A DNA stretch of 64,000 bases, from NCBI GenBank assembly GCA_010093705.1, contig MU006096.1, positions 1,400,497 through 1,464,496 of the forward strand, in the 5' to 3' direction. Below are positions 32,477-64,000 of this stretch, piece by piece. The notes below the pieces were generated by a model. It did not search any database, was not told the origin of the DNA, and saw nothing but the letters and a program-made list of their open reading frames with translations. Position numbers and translations under genes: made by a program. This DNA comes from Patellaria atrata CBS 101060 (lineage: Eukaryota > Ascomycota > Dothideomycetes > Patellariales > Patellariaceae). How positions within the stretch are numbered: the first letter of the stretch is position 1; every line of letters begins with the position of its first letter.

Positions 32477-35400
32477 TTACGGTTCACTCTTTGTCCCCGC
32501 CACATTTTCTCCTTCCGTCTCTGCAGGAGCGGCTGCTGGGGGAGCAGGAGGAGGGGGAGCATGAGGAGCATTAACTCCACCGGAGCCGGCAGCATTTTTC
32601 TCCCCTTCCTTCTTCTTTTCCACTGCCCTCTTCCTCCTCTCAACCTCCTCCGGGAAGACTTCCCCAAACAAGTCCGGTAAAAATCTCTCCAACCTCTTCC
32701 ACGTCTCGGTCCACAGATTTTCCAACTCAGGCCTCTCCTCCGGGGTTGCTAGATAACCTCCGTTCTTCATAACATATAGAATATTCTTCAAGTTCTCCGC
32801 CACCGCCTCTTCCAGATGCTCGCCCTGCCCGCTGTTCATCAACCTATCCATGATGGCTAGAATGCGGAGCCAAAGTTCAACCATGCCCTCCCATTCCGAC
32901 AGATCAACGAGGTGATGTAGGAAAATCTTGCAGAGCAGAGTCGCCGCCTGGACCCTTGTCTCGCTCATGCCGACCGGGTCAGATTGCCAGACCTCGGGTT
33001 TCAGCAGTTGCGTGATGAGTGGGAAAAGAACTTCGGTGAAGATGGCCGTCCATTCTTTGTGCTCCGGCGAGGCGAGGTCGTTCGACAGTAGCGAGCGTTG
33101 GAGTGATGAGAAAGCTTGTTGGCGGACCTCCCGGCTTGGGTTGAGGCATTGCGTCGTAAGCGCCCTAAAGATAGGCGACCAGTACGCGTTCCATGCTGAA
33201 GAATGTTAGAGAACTGTAGAAAATGGCCTTGAGTTAAGTTTACCTTCTGTTGCCTCCAAATGGGATTGCTCTATGAAATAAGGAACCCGGCTCGTCATCG
33301 AATGAATCATATGAACGGCCTTTACGCCACGCACTACCACTTCGCTTGTCCTGCAATATAATCAGCTTGTGTTGAGATTGTCACCAAAGATGGACCTACT
33401 GAGTTTTCTTCAGTGCCTGTTTCGCCGCATTTGCCTTCCTGGTTGCTTGCTCGCGCTTATGCATTTCTGCAGCACCTAAGCTACCAGCCGTAGCGAATTC
33501 ATTGAGCAATGAAATTGCAGCTTCGTAATTGTCAGCCGTAATCCCAGGTTGGGAAGCTTCAAACAGAGCTTGCACAACGTTGAAGACTGCAGCTGCGGAT
33601 TTCTTGTTCGAAGCTAGCGAATGTAAGATTGACCAAAAATTGGGCGAATTTGCCATTTCACTGCGAAGACCAGCGGGCCCATCAATGCATTCAGAAAGAC
33701 CTTTGAGAAGGGGCAAAGCACATTGATTTAAGAGGTCAGGGTTGAAGCTAGAGAATGTATGGAGAACTACAGGTGCTCGGATAAAGTCGTGATCCTGGAT
33801 GCCGTCATTAACTGGTTGCGGTAGTGAGCCTCCTGGTTCAGCTTTACTTACGTTACTCTCCCTTAGGAGACACAGAAGGTAGTATACCGTTCTCGAAACG
33901 ACAACAGGGTTGTAATTCTGGGAGTCCCGAATGACCGTCTGGAGCGCATCCGCCACCTCCTTCCCGAATGCTTCAATGGTTTTAGCATCTCTTAGGACGA
34001 GAGTGGTTGCTAGTTCCAGGACGAATACGATGGATGGATCGTATATAGGCTTCTTAATCTTAGCCTTCGTGCCGTTTGGCCTTAACGGGCTTGGAGCAGG
34101 AAGATCGGGCTTAACTACGATGACGCGCGGTGATGAATCCTCTGGTATTTGCTCTAGAAGTGTCATGAGCAGTGACTTTACACCTTCAGTTGGCATTTGG
34201 CTAGAGGCATTCAGTAACTGATCCCTTTTCAATTTTCAATCGGTCTTACCTAATGTTTCGGAAGATATCATCGAAATTACAGGAGTTTATGGCATCAATC
34301 GCACACAACGTATACTCAATCTCCTGTTCTGACGGCTCGGGGGGTTCATCCGTTGCAAAACTTGAAACGTAAGAGGTGAATGCAGAGAATAATCCAGTCT
34401 CTACTGGTCGCTCCCCGCGTTCTATGATCTGAGCGGGGCTTTGGAGAGGAATCGGTGGAAGATCCATTGTTTTAGGTATCGAGGAGAAAGTCGGAGGGAT
34501 GAGGGCGTTCACAAAAAGGTTTAGAATAATGCGAACAATCTGCAAATTATTAGTGACCTGTATGAAAAAGGCTGTGTGTACTCACGGGTCCCCAGCCGTC
34601 CCTAACAGCCAACTCATTGTTGTGAACGACACCGAAAAGCACCACAGTCGCTAACTGCGCCCTATCGTCACGGCCGAATCGAACGGCGGTCTCGCTAACC
34701 ATGACGCTCTTCTTCTCAACTTGAACTTCTGTATTGAGTGATGTGCTAGCAGGCGTCTCAGGCGCCAGCGTGCTGATATAGCTTAGAGAATTCACAATGC
34801 GATCTAGACATTCCGTCAACCCATATCTGGATGCAATCTGTGCGCACTGATTGAAAGCAGCGATTACACGCGAATAAACAGCATCCTCTGAAGCCGACAT
34901 GAACACGAAAGATAAAGTGGCCACGATAGGTTTCCACGTCGCAGCAAACATATCTGCGTCGAAAAGATTCGTGTCACATATCGCCAAATGAGCCGCCGAT
35001 TGAACCTTGACCTGAAGCTCTTTCCACGCGTGGTCGTACGCATTCCTGTTGTCGTGCTCCTCTGGTAAGATAATCTCATTAGTCTTGATAGAATCGTAGA
35101 TGCCTTGGAGATATTCTTGGTCGAAGTCGTTTCCGTCATTAACCCCACGGAGATTTTTCGCGAAATCTGTATAAGCCATGCGCTGCTGAGATTTCAGATT
35201 CGGATTATGTTGATCGGTGTTCAACATAATGATAGCGAAACAAAGAACATAGACAGCATCTTGATTCGCGAGACCGTCAGGGGGGGAGTTAGCACAGTAT
35301 CGTGCTGCGAACTCCGTCACTATGCGATCAATCAACTGAGCCTCTCCGGGTAGACGGAACGAGATAAGAAGATGCCTCAGAGCTTCATCCACCCTCAGAC

Positions 35401-37599
35401 CAGAGAAGTCGAAAGTGCCCATAAATGCAGTGAGGATCTCTTCGTTACCTCTTTTAGTCAGAAATTCACCGAGTATCTTTTTGTCGAGCCGTGATGTGGC
35501 TCGACAAAATTTGGCAACCGAAATAGGATTGTTTGGGTCATCAATAACTCCCTGTGATGCTAAATATGCGATGCCAGTTTTCGGCCTCTCGTTGAACTTT
35601 CTTGCGCCTCTAATGATAGTCCTTTTCAGGGCTCGCTGCTGTCTTAGAAATTCGACATCTGGGAAGGGATCACGATTTGGTTCGTCATCCAATCGATCCG
35701 CAATGAACTGCACGTAGCCTAGAAGAGCGTCCAAACAGAGTGGCGGAACATTAGTCGTACTCCAGGTCGCAGAATCTGGGAAGGCATTGCGTGACAACAG
35801 GCCCACCATATCCGTACAAAGATCACCGCGGTCGATTTCGCAGTCGTAATTGACGAATAGTTCAACCATAAAAGAGGGTATCCTAATAAGTGCGCCAACA
35901 CTTTCAACCATCGCTTCTCTTGCATCTGGTTTACGTGCTCCCCCTTCCAACCCAAGTTTCTGTCGGTCTTTAACAGGGACCGGTGTCGATCTTCCACTGT
36001 TAGGAGCCGGCGAGGATGGAGGGTTCTTTGATAAACTTGGGGCCTGTGGAACACCTTCGTATATTTCAGGAGGTATACCCGGCTCTAGTGGAATGTCGAC
36101 CTTCGGGAATAGACAAGCAACGAGGTAAGATAAGAACAACTCTTGTTGTAGCTTGAGCACACCTCTGCACGTCGCTATAAGAGTATACGCTACTCTTAGA
36201 GACTCGTTCAATATGGCCATATTTTCGGACCTAACAAGCTGGAATAGGTGTCGACAAAGGGTGTCTTTTGCCAATGAAGCCAAACTTGGATGATTTGCTA
36301 TTGAGGGTCCCGCAACTTCAAGCGCTACATCAACAATCCTGAGTCCCATAATACGCATAGTATCGGTATGTTGACGGTCATGTGGATCTAGCAGATCGAC
36401 AAGTACCCTCAGCAGTTCTCGAATGGATGGTAGCGAGTATGGTTTGACAATAACATCCTCTTCCGAAGTTAGTTCTTTAGGAAGGTCTATATGGCTGCCA
36501 TTAATGTTGCCTATTACCGGCTTTTCTTCGCTCCTATCCTGGGATCTTTCCTCTCGTGGAGTATCGACCCTCGTATCAGAGCTGGTTGAAGGTCTCGCCT
36601 CGGCCTCCTTGGTGCTCGGTACGGTGAGATTGGTACCGTTTACCGTAGGATCCATTTTCACGGCATCCATATCGTCTTTGGTGTCCTCATCTAAAGCACC
36701 CGGCTCTTCTCCCGCCTCAATCTCCAGATGTTTTAGCCGTTCAAATATGACCTGACACATCGTGATCATGGATATCTCTGCAGCCCGCCGTAACTGTTCT
36801 GACAACCTGCTCTGGCAGCACATGCTTAGTCCCGTCTCCATCATCTCACAAATGCTCTCGTCTCCCAGTATATCTCCCCCAGGTCCGGAAATCATGCCTT
36901 CCATAAGCTTCAGTATTCTTAGTAAGACAACCTCATCAGAAGAGGAATCCGTAGCTTCAAACCGGCAATGTGTGATCGCGGAGGAGAGCAGTTGCATAGC
37001 AACTGACAATCGAGGGGAATCTCGACAAATGATATTGTATTGGAGAAACTTAGTAATAGCAACGAGAGCTAAAGAGGTGATCGGGGCCGAAGTCGAGGAA
37101 GACCGAATTACTTGGAGAAAAGGGTGAAAGAGCGCCGGCGTGTCGAATTGTCTGATATCTGAATTTACTTAGCATAGACCTAGTTCGTCTCTTATCAGAC
37201 CATACCTTTACAGCCTTTCAGATCTGCCCTCAACCGTGCAAATGCTGCCATAAGCGGGTTGTCCTGCATGCTTTTCCCTTTCTTGCCCCTCAGACCCCAT
37301 CGCGACACTGAATCCTCCTCCTCCAAGTTGATACTGCTCGCCGAAGCTTGCTTTGGTTTATGCGTCCTCGGCGTCGGAGGCGGTCTACTTGATCCTCCGC
37401 CTAGGATAGCAGCTACTGACGAGTGTGCCCACCGTGCATGCTTTCGCATGGCAGATGTGACAGTTATACATTCTGTGACAACGAGGGCGACGGGGTCCAC
37501 AGCTATAGGAATAGGTCTGGTGTGAGTAAGGGTAGGAGTAGATGCTTGGGGCCTCGAAAGGACAGCAGAGTCCTCCTTATGTCTGTCATTGCTCATCAT
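32477..37599 (-). CDS. ARF guanine-nucleotide exchange factor GEA/GBF1 (Sec7 domain)
   Basis: About six exons, roughly 1,600 aa. Exon 1 (37599-37206) ends AAA G|GTATGG and joins 37157 onward. The large exon runs to about 34,590, with further introns near 34,590-34,545, 34,250-34,230, 33,400-33,350 and 33,245-33,195. The N-terminal DCB region includes HARWAHSSVAAILGGG and DNPLMAAFARLRADL. The HUS box precedes the Sec7 domain, which shows FDFSGLRVDEALRHLLISF, the glutamic-finger loop FRLPGEAQLIDRI, and CFAIIMLNTDQHNPN. The C-terminal HDS regions follow, and the tail is Pro/Ala-rich and acidic. GEA loads GTP on ARF1 at the early Golgi for COPI coat formation. The ATG doublet at 37599/37596 leaves the exact start ambiguous by one codon. 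The gene is intact. Confidence 0.93.
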
Positions 37600-57621: not shown

Positions 57622-58091
57622 TATGGAAGCAATATGACCGCTATCCTCAATTTTTCAGTGTTGGCTTATTTTATGCAAGAAGCCGTATGATGTACGTATA
57701 CGCGTAAGCCTCAAGGTTTAGCTTCGGGTCGCACGCGGTCTACAGCTAGTTTATATCGCGTCTGGTTTATGAGGGATAACTGGGTACTTTGCATGTTTCT
57801 TTTTGAGAGTGTTTATGCTGATTCCCGTTTCAATGTTGATGGGATCGGGTAATGGTCAAGGGATTTACAATACTATAGAAGTTCTAGACAGTCCATGCAT
57901 GAAAACACTATACACTTTTTCTAAATATTTTAAGAAAAGAAAAACTCTAATAATCTCTTAATTTTAAAAAAATAAATTTAAAATATTAAAAATAATTCTT
58001 CAAATAAAATAACGTAAAGCATCACCGAGTGTCGCACACCACCGAGTGTCGCAGAATTTCTTGGCAGCTATTACCTCTACTACAACACGAA
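57622..58091. other. edge of AT-rich island
   Basis: Promoter of the preceding gene, then from about 57,895 the base composition falls to A/T-rich. Just before the transposase start there are two direct copies of CACCGAGTGTCGCA (58023-58036 and 58040-58053). They may be part of a terminal sequence of the element. Confidence 0.55.
58023..58053 (+). repeat. two direct repeats CACCGAGTGTCGCA, 17-nt period
   Basis: Two exact 14-nt copies separated by CAC, 39 nt upstream of the transposase ATG. The position suggests subterminal repeats that bind transposase. No inverted partner was found at the far side, where the DNA is too mutated to judge. Confidence 0.85.
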
Positions 58092-59168
58092 ATGTCTCAA
58101 CAACAACAAGATAATAAAGCTCAACAAGAAGGCCGAATAGAGCTTGCACTTCAAGCCTATAAGGAAGGCCAATTTCGAAGCCTACGACGCGCCGCCGCCG
58201 CGTATAACGCGTGCCCACGAAAGCTTCAGCGAAGATACAACCAAACCCTCGCCCGAGCCAATTGCCAGCCTAATTGCCAGAAGCTCACCGCGACCGAAGA
58301 GCAAACGATCGTCCGATATATTCTTGACCTCGATTCGCGAGGATTTGCGCCCCGGCTATGTGAGGTAGCAGATATGGCAGATAAACTATTGGACGCGCGG
58401 GGTGGGGAGCGAGTAGGTAAGAACTGGCCTGAAAGATTTGTAACGCGTTCAGATGAGCTAAAGATGGCCTTCAATCGAGCAAAGGATCGTCAAAGAATAC
58501 TCTAGGAAGATCCTAAGACAATTGGCGCGTGGTTTAAGCTCGTTAGGGAGACAAAAGTCAAGTACAGCGTCTATAACGACGACGTCCACAATTTCGACGA
58601 GACTGGCTTCCAGATGGGTGTAATTGGGTCAATGAAAGTTGTTACAGGCGCAGAGAGGCGTACGAGGCCTGATATTATCCAGCCAGGCGATCGGGAGTGG
58701 GTTACAGTCATCTAGAGCATCTGCGCTGCAGGGTACGCGATCCCACCCTTCATCATCTATAAAGGCCGCGTCCACATCTCTACATGGTACGAGGAGATAG
58801 ATATACCGCGTAACTGGAAGATCTCAGTCTCTAAGAACGGCTGGACAAATAACGCGCTTAGTCTTGAGTGGTTGAAGCACTTTAACGCGCATATAAAGGC
58901 GCGTACGGTAGGGGTATACCGGCTGCTTATCCTCGACGGCCATGAGAGCCACCTTAACTAGGATTTCAAGAATTACTACCTAGAGAACAAGATCTTAACG
59001 CTCTATATACCTCCTCATTTATCGTATATACTCTAACCACTTAACGTAATCTACTTTTCGCCATTAAAGCGTAAGTACTCCTAACGCGTTCAAGACTTAA
59101 TACGCCGACATGTCTTCTATATTAATAAAGAGAGCTTTCTATTAACCTTTAAAAACGTGTTTTTTTAA
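58092..59168 (+). pseudogene. RIP-damaged pogo/Fot1-type DDE transposase
   Basis: One uninterrupted frame, apart from stops, from ATG 58092 (MSQQQQDNKAQQEGRIELAL). The N-terminus has a Psq-type helix-turn-helix (FRSLRRAAAAYNACPRKLQRRY) followed by a CENP-B-like Tc5 DNA-binding region. The DDE core shows NFDETGFQMG (first Asp) and LLILDGHESHLN (second Asp). The third block reads PLNVIYFSPLK where the family has PLDV, so the Asp is probably changed to Asn. In-frame stops occur at 58503 (TAG), 58713 (TAG), 58959 (TAG), 59034 (TAA), 59082 (TAA) and 59166 (TAA). Each fits an original CAG/CAA codon hit by C-to-T; the last is less certain. The C-terminus dissolves into the AT-rich block. The element is dead. 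Confidence 0.9.
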
Positions 59169-59384
59169 TATATTTATAGAGAAGAACTATTATAAAATCT
59201 TTAAAATATTAGATCTTATTTCTATTAATATATAAATAATACTAGATTATTTTAAAATATATTTATATATTTTATTAAAATCTTTATTATTATAAATATT
59301 ATAATAATTAAAAACTTTAAATAATATATTTAAATTTAAATTATAATTAAAGTTTATATAAAATTTTATTATTAAATTATTTAT

Positions 59385-59595
59385 TATTATAATAATATAG
59401 CGGTTATAGAGAATCGAATTAAATTATAACTAATATAATTTAACTATAATATAAAGAGATTAAATTAAAGAAAAAAGAAGTTATAATTATATAATCTATT
59501 AATATTAAATATATAATAATAGAACTTTAATATAACTATTATTAATAAAGAAAAGTAAGAAATAATAATCTATAATATTATTATATTATCTCTTT
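59385..59595 (+). repeat. left arm of diverged inverted repeat
   Basis: Sequence such as GCGGTTATAGAGAATCGAAT, through ATATAAAGAGATTAAATTAA, to TAATAATCTATAATATTATT is matched by the reverse complement of about 61545-61755. The match extends about 200 nt with scattered transitions. Confidence 0.75.
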
Positions 59596-61544
59596 TTTTA
59601 AAAGTAAAAATTATTAATTAATTATAAATTTTTATAATAATATTCGTTTTATTTATATTTACTTTTAATATTTTTAAATTTAAGTTAAATCTTTCTTTTT
59701 AATTTTATTATTATTTAGATATAGTTTTAGTTTATAATTATTAATTTAATAGATTTTAAGTTATATATTTAATTAAATTAAAAACTTAATATTTAATAAT
59801 CTTTTATTATAAAATTTCTCTATTTTATATAAAGTTTTAATAAAATTTAAGACTAAATATTATATATTATCGAGATTATAATTTACTTAACTTACTTTAT
59901 ATTATAGTTAACTTTATATAATATAGCTAGCTAATATTTTATCGACTTTATATTTTAATTCTCTATTAATTTTAATTAATAAAGATAATTTTAACTATTA
60001 ATTTAAAAATAAATTTATAATAACTTTTCTTAATTTATCCGCGTGAAATATATTTAATATCTTTATATTAAATAGTAAATTTATTATATAAAAGTATCTC
60101 TTTATATTAATAATTTTATATAGTCTAATATTTTAGTAATCTAGTTTAATACTTAATTTATTTAAAGTTTAATCTTTTTAAATAATAAAGATATAATTAT
60201 TTAGCTTAAAGTTTAACTTTTAATAATATTTATTAGTTACTTTAATTTATATTACTTATACTTAAATTAAATTCCCTTTAATTTATTTAATAATATTATA
60301 AGTTTATTTTATAAACTATTATATCTTTTCTTAACTTATATAATTTTTAATAATTTTATAATTATTTAGATTAATACGCTTATATTAATTAAAATATATT
60401 TATAGTTTATATCTAAATTCTAATTTATATAGTAAAATATTTATTAATTTATAGATTAATATTATTTAAATAAAGTTTATAATTAATATTAATTTTAATT
60501 AATTATTTTAATAGTAATTTATAAAGAAGTATAATTTTAAATTAATATATTAATTTATAATCTTTATATTATTATTTATTTAGAAATAATATATTATAAA
60601 TAGCTTTTATTTAACTTTTATTAATTTATATAATTTATTTATAAATATTAAAATAAATTAGAGTTTTTAATTAAATATTACTATTTTAAATATATTATAT
60701 ATTCTTTATATATATTTATAATATAGTTTAGCTATTAATTTAGCGGATATATTTTATTTATAAGATATAAAGATAATTTATTTTCTAAATCTATTAATAA
60801 TAATAAAAATTATCTTAAATTTATATTTATTTTTTAGAAATAATTTAAAATAAAATATTATATATTATTAATATTTATCTTTAATTAATAAAGATTTTAG
60901 TAAATTTAAAATTTTATCTTTTAATATATATATTTAATAATATATATAATAGTTTTATATATATCTTTTTATATTAATTATTAAGCCTAGTTAATAATAT
61001 TAATTTTTAACTAAATTTTTTATTTTCTATACTTTTAAATATTCGATTATTAGAATATTATAGATATTTTAAAGTAAATATATATAAAGATTATTAATAT
61101 CTAATATTATTAACTAATTAAACTATAATAATAGACTTTTACGAATATTTTAATACTTTTTTCTTATCTTAACTTATTTTTAAAAGAGAGTTAATAATTT
61201 ATATATTCTATTCTCTTAAATAATTTTATTAATAAGTTTAATTAGTAATAATTACTTTATTAATATTTTTTAAAATCTTAAAATTAATTATTTATATAAT
61301 TTAGAATTATTTTTCTTTATATTAAATTCTAATTAATTTATAATAGTTTTAAATCTTCTTCTTTTCTTTTTTCCGATTCTATAATTTTCTAGGCTAAATT
61401 AAAGTAAATTAAATATAATATTTATTTAATTTTAATTTAATATAGTTAATTTAATTATATTTTTTTTCTTCTTAAATATATATTTTATTAGTTTTATTAT
61501 TATAATAAAAGATATTAAAAACTTAATTAAAGTATTCTTAAATA

Positions 61545-61755
61545 TTATAATAATATTATAAATTATTATTTTCTATTTTCCTTTATTAATAGTAGTCGCG
61601 TTAAAATTCTATTATTATATACTTAATATTAATAAATTATATAATTATAATTTTTTCTTTTTTTAATTTAATCTCTTTATATTATAATTAAATTATATTA
61701 ATTATAATTTAATTTAATTCTCTATAATTATTATATTATTATATTAAATTAAGTT
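61545..61755 (-). repeat. right arm of diverged inverted repeat
   Basis: Its reverse complement reads AATTATAGAGAATTAAATTA, then ATATAAAGAGATTAAATTAA, then GCGACTACTATTAATAAAGG, in the same order as the left arm at 59385-59595. The pair could be terminal inverted repeats of a 2.4-kb element or two opposite copies of one sequence. Confidence 0.75.
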
Positions 61756-61796
61756 CTACTACTATAATCTTAAAAAGATAATATAATATTTTAACT

Positions 61797-62035
61797 TAAT
61801 ATTTAAAAGTATTAAAATTAAAGATTATAAATTTATTTAATATCTAAAAATATTAAAATCGATAATAATAAGAAAAACCTAATACTTAAAAATATTAAAA
61901 CTAAAAATTATAAGTTTATTTAGTATTTAAAAGTATTAAAATCGATAATAATAAAAGAAACTCGATATTTAAAAATATTAAAATTAAAGATTATAAATTT
62001 ATCTAATATTTAAAAGTATTAAAATTAATAATAAG
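61797..62035 (+). repeat. 83-bp tandem repeat, about 3 copies
   Basis: The segment ATCGATAATAATA recurs at about 61858 and 61941. The segment AA(A/T)TTATAA(A/G)TTTAT recurs at about 61822, 61905 and 61988. Both give an 83-nt period. Copies differ by transitions only, as far as read. Confidence 0.7.
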
Positions 62036-63802
62036 TAAATTATTATAAAATAATTAAATTATTAGAAATAATAATACGGGAAAATATTATAAAAGATATT
62101 AAATTTATAAATTATTTTATTATAAAATATAATATTAAATTAAAAGAAAAAAATATTAAATATAATTAATATTTTTTAAAAATCGCGTTAATTAATATAT
62201 TAATTATAGAGGAAATATTTAAGAAAGATCTTTAAAATATATTATAATAATATAAAAATAAATATAAATAATAAAAGTTAAGATATAAAATTATTTTAAA
62301 TTAAGAATATATTAATAATATTAAAAATATTAAATAAATATTATAAAATAATTTAAATAACTTTATAAAAAAATATTTATAAAGTTTATTATAATTAATA
62401 GTTTATAAAAAGTAAATAAAGATATTAGCTAAAATAATTAAATAATATTATAAAAAAATAATATAGAAAATAATTATATATAAAGTTAATAAGAAAATTA
62501 TAAAAAATCTTTAAAATAAGAATTAAATTCTATATAATTAATTAATATAAATATAGATTAATTAAAACTAAATTAACTATATTATAATAAAAGATATAAT
62601 AGAAAGTATAAGAACTTTAAAAAGTAAAAATAATAAATTAAATAAATTTCCTAATTTATTTATATTAATTAATAATAAGAATCTAATTTACTAAATATAA
62701 AAGAGTTAATTAATAGATAAACTTAAATATAATATTAACTAATATTTAATAAATAAAGATTAAATAATATATATTAAGATAAAGATAAATAATTAATTAA
62801 TTAATTAAATATATTTATATTTAAAATTAAAAATAAAAGATAATAAAATTATTATATTTAAAAATTTACTTAAATTTATTTATTAAATTTATAAAGACTT
62901 TAATAAATATCTTAAAATTAAAGATAAACTAAAAAAGTTAAATTAAAACTATTTAATAAACTTTATAAAATTTTAGTTAAATTTTATTTATTTAGCTATA
63001 AAGATTAAATTATTTAAAGATTAATAGAAAGAAAAGATTTATAAGAAACTATATAATTCTTTATAATAGATTATAATATTAAATATAATAAATAATAATA
63101 TTAGTTTTAAAGAATTTTATTAATAAATAATATTTTAAATATAAGGCTTAAAGAAATAAAGTTAAAAGTTAAAAAAACGATAAAAGAAGTAATAAAAATA
63201 TAAGACTATTAAAGTAATTTTAAATATTATAATAATAAATAGAACTATAATTTAATAATTAAATAAAGTTTTAAATATAATTACTTCTTTATAATAATTA
63301 ATAGATTAGAGTACTATAATAATTTAAAAGTTTATAGAAAATTACTTTAATTATAGTAAATCGAGGTATTAATTAGTTAATTACTAAGTATAAAGAAAGA
63401 TAGTCGAGATTAAGTTAATTTAAATGGAGTAAAATAAATTAAACTAGAAATTAGAACTAAAAAATAAGAAACTTTAAATAAAGACTTTATTTTAAAATTA
63501 TTAATAAAAGTATTAAAAGTATTAATAAATAATTTAATTATAAAGAAATTTTTTATTATATTATATCGAGTATTAAAAAACGAAATTATAATATAACTTA
63601 AGATCTTAATTAATATAAGAGTCTAAATATAATAATATAATATAGCTATAGTAATTATATTTTAACTATCTCTATTATTAACTATTAAGTATAGAGATTA
63701 AATTAAGAAATAATAATATTATAGACTAAATATCTATATATAATAGTCCTATCTTATTAAGTTTCGGCCTAATTATCTTCCATTTAACTAATTAGCGCTT
63801 AG

Positions 63803-64000
63803 AGATCTTTTCCACGTCTAATTTAGTAAAGATCTCTTATAAATAAACTAAACACTTAATATAGAAAATACGGGATTAGTATTATAATATATCGTTATAT
63901 TATTATGACGACGTGTCACGATGCTAATCCCGTATTTCCTATGCTGAGTGTTTGGTTTATTTGCAAGAGATCTTTGCCGGGTCGGACGCGGAAAAGATCT
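63803..64000. repeat. large palindrome with one RIP-mutated arm
   Basis: Left arm from AGATCTTTTCCACGTC (63803), right arm ending GACGCGGAAAAGATCT (64000), centre near 63,901. Aligned with the reverse complement of the right arm, the left arm differs only by C-to-T and G-to-A changes (for example TAATTTAGTA against CGACCCGGCA, and CACTTAATATAGAA against CACTCAGCATAGGA). The shared core ATACGGGATTAG is intact in both. The feature is cut by the window end only if the arms extend further. Confidence 0.88.

What the first reader, a model, noticed from the sequence alone, without database searches (positions are those of the whole stretch)
63803..64000. 198-bp palindrome in which one arm is RIP-mutated and the other is not
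The two arms are inverted copies of one sequence. All differences I see run one way: the left arm has T or A where the right arm has C or G. The transition from mutated to clean DNA therefore falls at the symmetry axis (about 63,901). RIP normally hits both copies of a repeat. A clean arm joined to a damaged one suggests that the right part arrived later (a fresh insertion next to an old copy in inverted orientation), or that mutation spread stopped at the hairpin axis. It may be the end of a new transposon or a fold-back element.
Basis: partly seen in the sequence, partly recalled or inferred. Interest (0 to 1): 0.75.

Follow-up and report, generated by a model that had tools for sequence, protein, structure and literature searches.

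The report
Head-to-head LTRs, old and young
The palindrome is the front ends of two copies of one fungal retrotransposon repeat standing head to head, an old copy riddled with RIP mutations and a younger, nearly intact one that most likely landed beside it and is cut off by the end of the assembled contig; this is ordinary transposon nesting.

Summary
Arms 63803-63899 and 63904-64000 are 97 nt each with a 4-nt spacer, and all 23 differences are C/G in the right arm against T/A in the left. Each arm is the first 97 bp of one 272-bp LTR (TGTGAC...GTCACA) with 41 matches in this fungal assembly. The left LTR is complete (63628-63899, minus strand): 66 one-way transitions, no transversion, no gap. 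The right LTR is nearly clean and is truncated because the window ends exactly where contig C8 ends. The likely history is sequential: an element inserted into an older relative and was RIP-mutated, then a younger copy inserted 4 bp from its end in the opposite orientation. Self-nesting is common here: 10 of 20 other copies tested sit in a copy of the same or a related element. A chimeric assembly junction is not excluded, but the right arm is identical to none of the 14 nearly clean copies compared. Low interest.

The parts
63628..63899 (-). Complete 272-bp LTR, heavily RIP-mutated (old copy); contains the left arm 63803-63899. Read here as the 3' LTR of a minus-strand element whose body would lie to the right of 63899.
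   Evidence: Gapless 272/272 alignment to the solo LTR on C21: 66 C>T/G>A, 0 reverse, 0 transversions. No PBS-side sequence follows it and no TSD match; the 4 nt before it (ATAA in LTR orientation) fit the PPT end GTAA with one transition.
63623..63627 (.). Left flank CTAAA of the old insertion (presumed left target duplication), inside the body of an older related element
   Evidence: Uninterrupted paralogous sequence at this point in L047, L013, L022, L012 and L020
63900..63903 (.). Spacer TTAT between the two LTRs: read as the first 4 nt of the RIP-mutated PPT (TTACCCCC...) of the old element; last 4 nt of the presumed target duplication (ATTAT, 63899-63903) of the young copy
   Evidence: Comparison of flanks in 24 LTR copies; TTAT or TTAC makes up 4.7% of 4-mers in the AT block, so this is suggestive only
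63904..64000 (+). First 97 bp of a second, nearly clean copy of the same LTR (young copy), cut off by the end of contig C8
   Evidence: 2 differences from the C21 copy, 1 from the C4 and C26 copies over 97 bp; contig end
62609..63627 (+). Part of the body of an older related element, extremely RIP-mutated (GC 0.09 over 61601-63627), interrupted by the old LTR
   Evidence: Purine/pyrimidine matches: 62609-63631 to L020 5640-6658 (body of the C42 copy) at 83%, 63282-63631 to L047 at 99.7%; composition
59382..61556 (.). Further RIP-mutated transposon remains of the same AT-rich block, which carry in unoccupied form the site that a solo LTR occupies on C14
   Evidence: 59828-61556 and 59382-59837 match L022 on the two sides of its solo LTR at 99.8% and 99.1% in purine/pyrimidine code

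Best explanation
Two insertions of one LTR retrotransposon family at different times. Step 1 (shown by comparison with paralogous unoccupied sites): an element in minus orientation inserted into the body of an older, related element; its LTR is 63628-63899. Step 2 (shown by the mutation pattern and context): RIP mutated this DNA, turning 66 of the LTR's C/G positions into T/A. Step 3 (inferred from structure): later another copy of the same family inserted in plus orientation 4 bp beyond the outer end of that LTR, so the 5' ends of the two LTRs face each other and form a palindrome with one damaged and one clean arm. The young copy shows no heavy RIP because it arrived after, or has not yet passed through, a RIP cycle, or because it is a solo LTR too short to be recognised (inferred). 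The clean arm stops at 97 bp because the assembly broke there, in a repeat with many near-identical copies.
For: Both arms start exactly at LTR position 1. Of the 41 LTR matches, 30 were fetched as loci; 24 of these are complete main-type copies (3 of a divergent subtype and 3 truncated ones set aside). 23 of the 24 resolve as 5' LTR (11, followed by CTAGATTAAG or its transition variants), 3' LTR (4, preceded by a PPT) or solo LTR (8 with 5-bp target duplications, 7 exact and 1 with one transition); the 24th ends with its contig. One-way changes against the C21 copy: 14 copies with 0-11, 10 with 35-65. RIP dinucleotide preference. Unoccupied paralogous site for the left LTR. Clean LTRs bordering very AT-rich DNA: 5'-side GC 0.06, 0.07, 0.08 and 0.17 in 4 of 14. 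Copies nested in a copy of the same or a related element: 10 of 20 other flanks, 104-577 bits against at most 68 for reversed-sequence controls; two more (L028 at 78, L050 at 89 bits) lie between and were not counted. LTR matches within 1,000 bp of a contig end: 14 of 41, four reaching the last base (C8, C34, C10, C27) (with contig lengths). RT lies before integrase in the C42 and C14 copies.
Against: The rest of the young LTR, its body and its right target duplication are not in the contig, so a complete insertion is not shown. No other contig was established as its continuation: 3' flanks ACTTT (C10), GTATT (C27), GTTAT (C17) and GAAAT (C1 end) differ from ATTAT; C11 has ATTAT but carries a divergent LTR subtype, and its further flank, judged by eye, fits neither expected continuation. 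Not all contig ends were read. The old LTR lacks a matching right target duplication, explained here by its being a 3' LTR; that rests on 4 nt. The 9 nt before the young LTR (TTATATTAT) are the same as before the C26 copy, and C26 aligns to 61 of the 66 junction bases at 87% and to 126 of the 200 bases at 94%, which leaves room for a chimeric junction.
Confidence: 0.85

Rival explanations
1. Assembly or library chimera: the last about 100 bases of contig C8 come from another clean LTR copy, joined by short shared sequence, and the true neighbour of the old LTR is different.
For: The junction lies at the contig end; contigs often break in this LTR; the 9 nt TTATATTAT before the LTR are shared with the C26 copy, which aligns to 61 of 66 junction bases at 87%.
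Against: The right arm is identical to none of the 14 nearly clean complete copies compared over 97 bp; the nearest, C4 and C26, differ at LTR position 2. Before the shared 9 nt the C26 flank differs from the window with several transversions (by eye). The junction falls exactly at LTR position 1. No other of the 10 places found matches all 66 junction bases.
Confidence: 0.1
2. Autointegration or another rearrangement of one element that put two LTRs head to head at the same time, followed by RIP of one arm only.
For: Head-to-head LTR starts with a 4-nt spacer are compatible with an inverted autointegration product (recalled, no call).
Against: 23 of 45 G/C sites are changed in the left arm while the right arm is almost unchanged; RIP of paired repeats changes both sequences (RIPCAL abstract, PMC2621366, seen in a search listing).
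Confidence: 0.03
3. A fold-back (Foldback/TIR) DNA element, or RIP spreading that stopped at the hairpin axis.
For: The palindromic geometry alone.
Against: Elsewhere the LTR occurs as 5', 3' or solo copy, and no other place among the matches covers both arms in one stretch (the first look scores only the best candidates). Clean copies abut very AT-rich DNA without the second arm.
Confidence: 0.02

Closest known systems
Ty3/gypsy-type LTR retrotransposons of filamentous ascomycetes (RT before integrase)
   Same: LTR with inverted terminal hexanucleotides TGTGAC...GTCACA, 5-bp target duplications, PPT before the 3' LTR, RT before integrase; an open RT frame of the C42 copy hits PF00078 at 1.6e-36, and many of its 120 listed homologues also carry PF17919/PF17917 (RNase H-type domains, names recalled); named ones include proteins from Talaromyces, Podosphaera and Sordaria, but also from two frogs and one record labelled Escherichia coli
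   Different: The sequence after the 5' LTR (CTAGATTAAGTTCACC) does not start with the TGG usual in tRNA-primed elements (recalled); protease, RNase H and Gag of the family were not tested; no family name could be assigned with these tools
crapaud LTR family of Podospora under RIP (PMC10787394; 12 passages read)
   Same: Mix of RIP-mutated and unmutated LTR copies with a bimodal GC distribution; [quoted passage not shown]
   Different: Different host and a 272-bp LTR; here 3 of 8 solo LTRs are RIP-mutated; head-to-head LTRs are not mentioned in the passages seen
RIP (repeat-induced point mutation)
   Same: One-way C:G to T:A changes with CpA preference
   Different: Nothing notable; CpG is also strongly hit

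Membership tests
Ty3/gypsy-type LTR retrotransposon | LTRs with short inverted ends starting TG and ending CA | tested here: met
   TGTGAC...GTCACA in unmutated copies, 272 bp, gapless in the 24 complete main-type copies compared; in both window copies TG reads TA, a transition
Ty3/gypsy-type LTR retrotransposon | Short target-site duplication (4-6 bp) | tested here: met
   5 bp in the 8 solo copies among 24, 7 exact and 1 with one transition; not testable for the young copy in the window
Ty3/gypsy-type LTR retrotransposon | RT before integrase in the body | tested here: met
   C42: RT 33694-34173, integrase 35461-35742; C14: RT 691796-692275, integrase 693800-694063, all on plus. Family copies elsewhere, not the window copies
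Ty3/gypsy-type LTR retrotransposon | PPT before the 3' LTR | tested here: met
   Purine run plus TAA before 4 of 24 main-type copies; in the window only 4 nt fit
Ty3/gypsy-type LTR retrotransposon | tRNA primer binding site after the 5' LTR | tested here: inconclusive
   Conserved sequence CTAGATTAAG after 11 of 24 copies, but no match to a tRNA was sought
RIP | One-way C:G>T:A transitions in repeats with dinucleotide preference | tested here: met
   66 of 66 changes one-way; CpA 29/30, CpG 22/34, CpC 8/25, CpT 7/32
RIP | RIP machinery (RID/DIM-2-type cytosine methyltransferases) | tested here: inconclusive
   Three places match PF00145 DNA_methylase, two of them without stops inside; the RID subfamily was not tested
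Foldback element | Both arms belong to one mobile unit that recurs as a unit | tested here: not met
   No second locus with both arms among the matches found (capped candidate lists); the arm sequence occurs elsewhere as an LTR

The most novel reading that the evidence does not exclude
The family's integrase is guided to old, RIP-mutated copies of its own kind (heterochromatin or sequence guided self-nesting), so that new copies land safely inside dead relatives; the head-to-head pair at the window end would be an extreme case, 4 bp from an old LTR. 10 of 20 other copies are self-nested, but the insertion points are scattered, and the share of such targets in the genome was not measured.
Probability: 0.15. 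Interest if true: 0.35.

Novelty: new member of a known kind. Interest (0 to 1): 0.15.

Why it matters
It shows that an abrupt border between RIP-mutated and clean DNA can simply be the border between two insertions of different age, and that such borders turn up at contig ends because young near-identical LTRs break assemblies. The layering (older element, old LTR, young LTR) gives a relative chronology of transposition and RIP at one locus. No new mechanism is needed.

Tried and rejected
Fold-back element: rejected, since the arm sequence occurs elsewhere as an LTR and no second two-armed locus was found. Left LTR as a 5' LTR with its body to the left: rejected, the expected PBS-side sequence is absent at 63627. 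Left LTR as a solo LTR: disfavoured by the flanks; the duplication would need CTAAA after 63899 and TTAT is there, with a transversion at the fourth base. A second LTR of the old element within 58000-63700: none found by transition-tolerant alignment. Telomere at the contig end: no (TTAGGG)4 in the readable sequence of the assembly. Continuation on another contig: C10, C27, C17 and the C1 end rejected on their 3' flanks; C11 shares ATTAT but has a divergent LTR subtype and a further flank that, by eye, fits neither the PPT nor the unoccupied site; not all contig ends were read. A constant k-mer length behind the contig breaks: not seen, the four breaks inside or at the end of the LTR fall at positions 97, 101, 157 and 272. 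Plasmid collection search with the palindrome: 74 records at an E-value limit of 10, the 20 listed ones at E 2-7, so chance. Host identity: 120 of 1030 homologues of the Sec7 gene were listed; the best named one is from Macrophomina phaseolina at 75% identity; the species was not determined. Paper searches on RIP with solo LTR/nested (1 paper), with palindrome/LTR retrotransposon (9 papers) and with 400 bp/CpA/LTR (15 papers, 10 listed) gave no listing whose title or abstract start describes such a head-to-head pair; only passages of PMC5445492 and PMC10787394 were read.

Full report
What is there. The palindrome is real: arms 63803-63899 and 63904-64000, 97 nt each, 4-nt spacer, 74 of 97 complementary. 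All 23 differences run one way, from C/G on the right to T/A on the left; none of the 52 A/T positions differs. The window is G000:C8:1400497-1464496, and contig C8 is 1464496 bases long, so position 64000 is the end of the contig, not of a repeat.

What the arms are. A genome search with the 200 bases gave 71 matches, many of them the same place on both strands because the query is a palindrome (40 of 71 candidates scored). Aligned in one orientation, the copies define a 272-bp LTR that starts TGTGAC and ends GTCACA. A search with one complete copy gave 41 matches, 30 of which were fetched; 3 of the 30 are of a divergent subtype (L038, L044, L046) and 3 are truncated (L037, L042, L051), leaving 24 complete main-type copies; the other 11 matches, the two in the window among them, were not put into this count. 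Of the 24, 11 are followed by CTAGATTAAG or its transition variants (5' LTRs), 4 are preceded by a purine run and TAA (3' LTRs), 8 are solo LTRs with 5-bp target duplications (7 exact, 1 with one transition), and 1 ends with its contig. The C42 and C14 copies have RT before integrase, the Ty3/gypsy order; an open frame in the C42 copy hits RVT_1 with E 1.6e-36.

Old and young. The left LTR spans 63628-63899 on the minus strand. Against the clean C21 copy it has 66 C>T/G>A changes, no reverse change, no transversion and no gap, with the RIP preference CpA 29/30, CpG 22/34, CpC 8/25, CpT 7/32. The right LTR has 2 changes in 97 bp against the same copy, one of them at the second base of the LTR. 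Across the 24 complete copies, one-way changes fall into two groups: 14 copies with 0-11 and 10 with 35-65; the window's left LTR has 66.

Order of events. In purine/pyrimidine code, which makes transitions invisible, the DNA left of 63628 matches the body of related elements (62609-63631 with L020 at 83%, 63282-63631 with L047 at 99.7%). In L047, L013, L022, L012 and L020 the sequence runs on uninterrupted where the window has the LTR, so the old LTR is an insertion into an older relative. Right of the old LTR stands TTAT instead of the duplication CTAAA; TTAT fits the reverse complement of the PPT end (TTAC...) with one transition, so I read the old LTR as the 3' LTR of a minus-strand element whose body continued to the right. 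This rests on 4 nt that make up 4.7% of 4-mers locally. The young copy then inserted 4 bp further, facing the old one. This order is inferred; the damage difference supports it.

Why the clean arm is clean. The mutation border coincides with the insertion border. Other clean LTRs also border very AT-rich DNA without the second arm (5'-side GC 0.06-0.17 in 4 of 14). A young copy may not have met RIP yet, or may be a solo LTR below the size RIP recognises; [quoted passage not shown] Against size as the whole reason, 3 of the 8 solo LTRs here are RIP-mutated, though they may have been hit before they became solo.

How ordinary it is. The 300 bp before 20 other copies (the 24 less the four 3' LTRs) were compared with one family copy in purine/pyrimidine code: 10 of 20 match it with 104-577 bits against at most 68 for reversed controls, at scattered positions; two more (78 and 89 bits) are undecided and 8 do not rise above the controls. 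One of the 10 (C17) has a copy preceded by positions 1-229 of another LTR of the same family. Of 41 LTR matches, 14 lie within 1,000 bp of a contig end (two of them the window's own pair) and four reach the last base; 92 such zones make up about 0.3% of 28.3 Mb, so about 0.1 would be expected if contig breaks and this repeat were unrelated (lengths).

Doubts. The junction is at a contig end and could be chimeric. Against this, the right arm is identical to none of the 14 nearly clean copies (nearest: 1 difference, C4 and C26), the junction is exactly at LTR position 1, and no other place matches it in full. In favour of doubt, 9 nt before the LTR are shared with the C26 copy, C26 aligns to 61 of 66 junction bases at 87%, and no contig with the other side of the insertion was found.

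Host. A filamentous ascomycete by its conserved genes (Sec7, Exo84, gamma-tubulin complex; named homologues of the Sec7 gene), an inference; three DNA methylase matches fit a RIP-competent genome but were not typed.

Noticed in passing
window 58001-59160: A stretch of normal GC content that reads like a pogo/Fot1-type transposase with stops (motif recalled; one ORF in it, 58029-58505, gave no Pfam hit) loses its GC content at about 59150; 96-98% purine/pyrimidine matches recur in the first 2 kb of C35 and C28 and on C26.
   Followed up: partly
L020/L038 (C42:30517-37007): A stretch of 6.5 kb with a main-type 5' LTR, RT, integrase and a 3' LTR of a divergent subtype (12 transversions, 2 gaps), whose outer flanks show no target duplication; recombinant element, two elements or a misjoin.
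   Followed up: no
L048 (C17:63695-63966): An LTR copy directly preceded, in the same orientation, by positions 1-229 of another LTR of the same family, as if inserted inside it.
   Followed up: partly
window 59382-61556 against L022: The window carries the unoccupied form of the site that holds a solo LTR on C14 with target duplication AGCCC.
   Followed up: yes
LTR positions about 63-99, in the window 63966-64000: An imperfect palindrome of about 35 bp inside the LTR (AGAGATCTTT...AAAAGATCT), which gives the extra direct repeat with 63801-63835; contig C8 ends at it.
   Followed up: no
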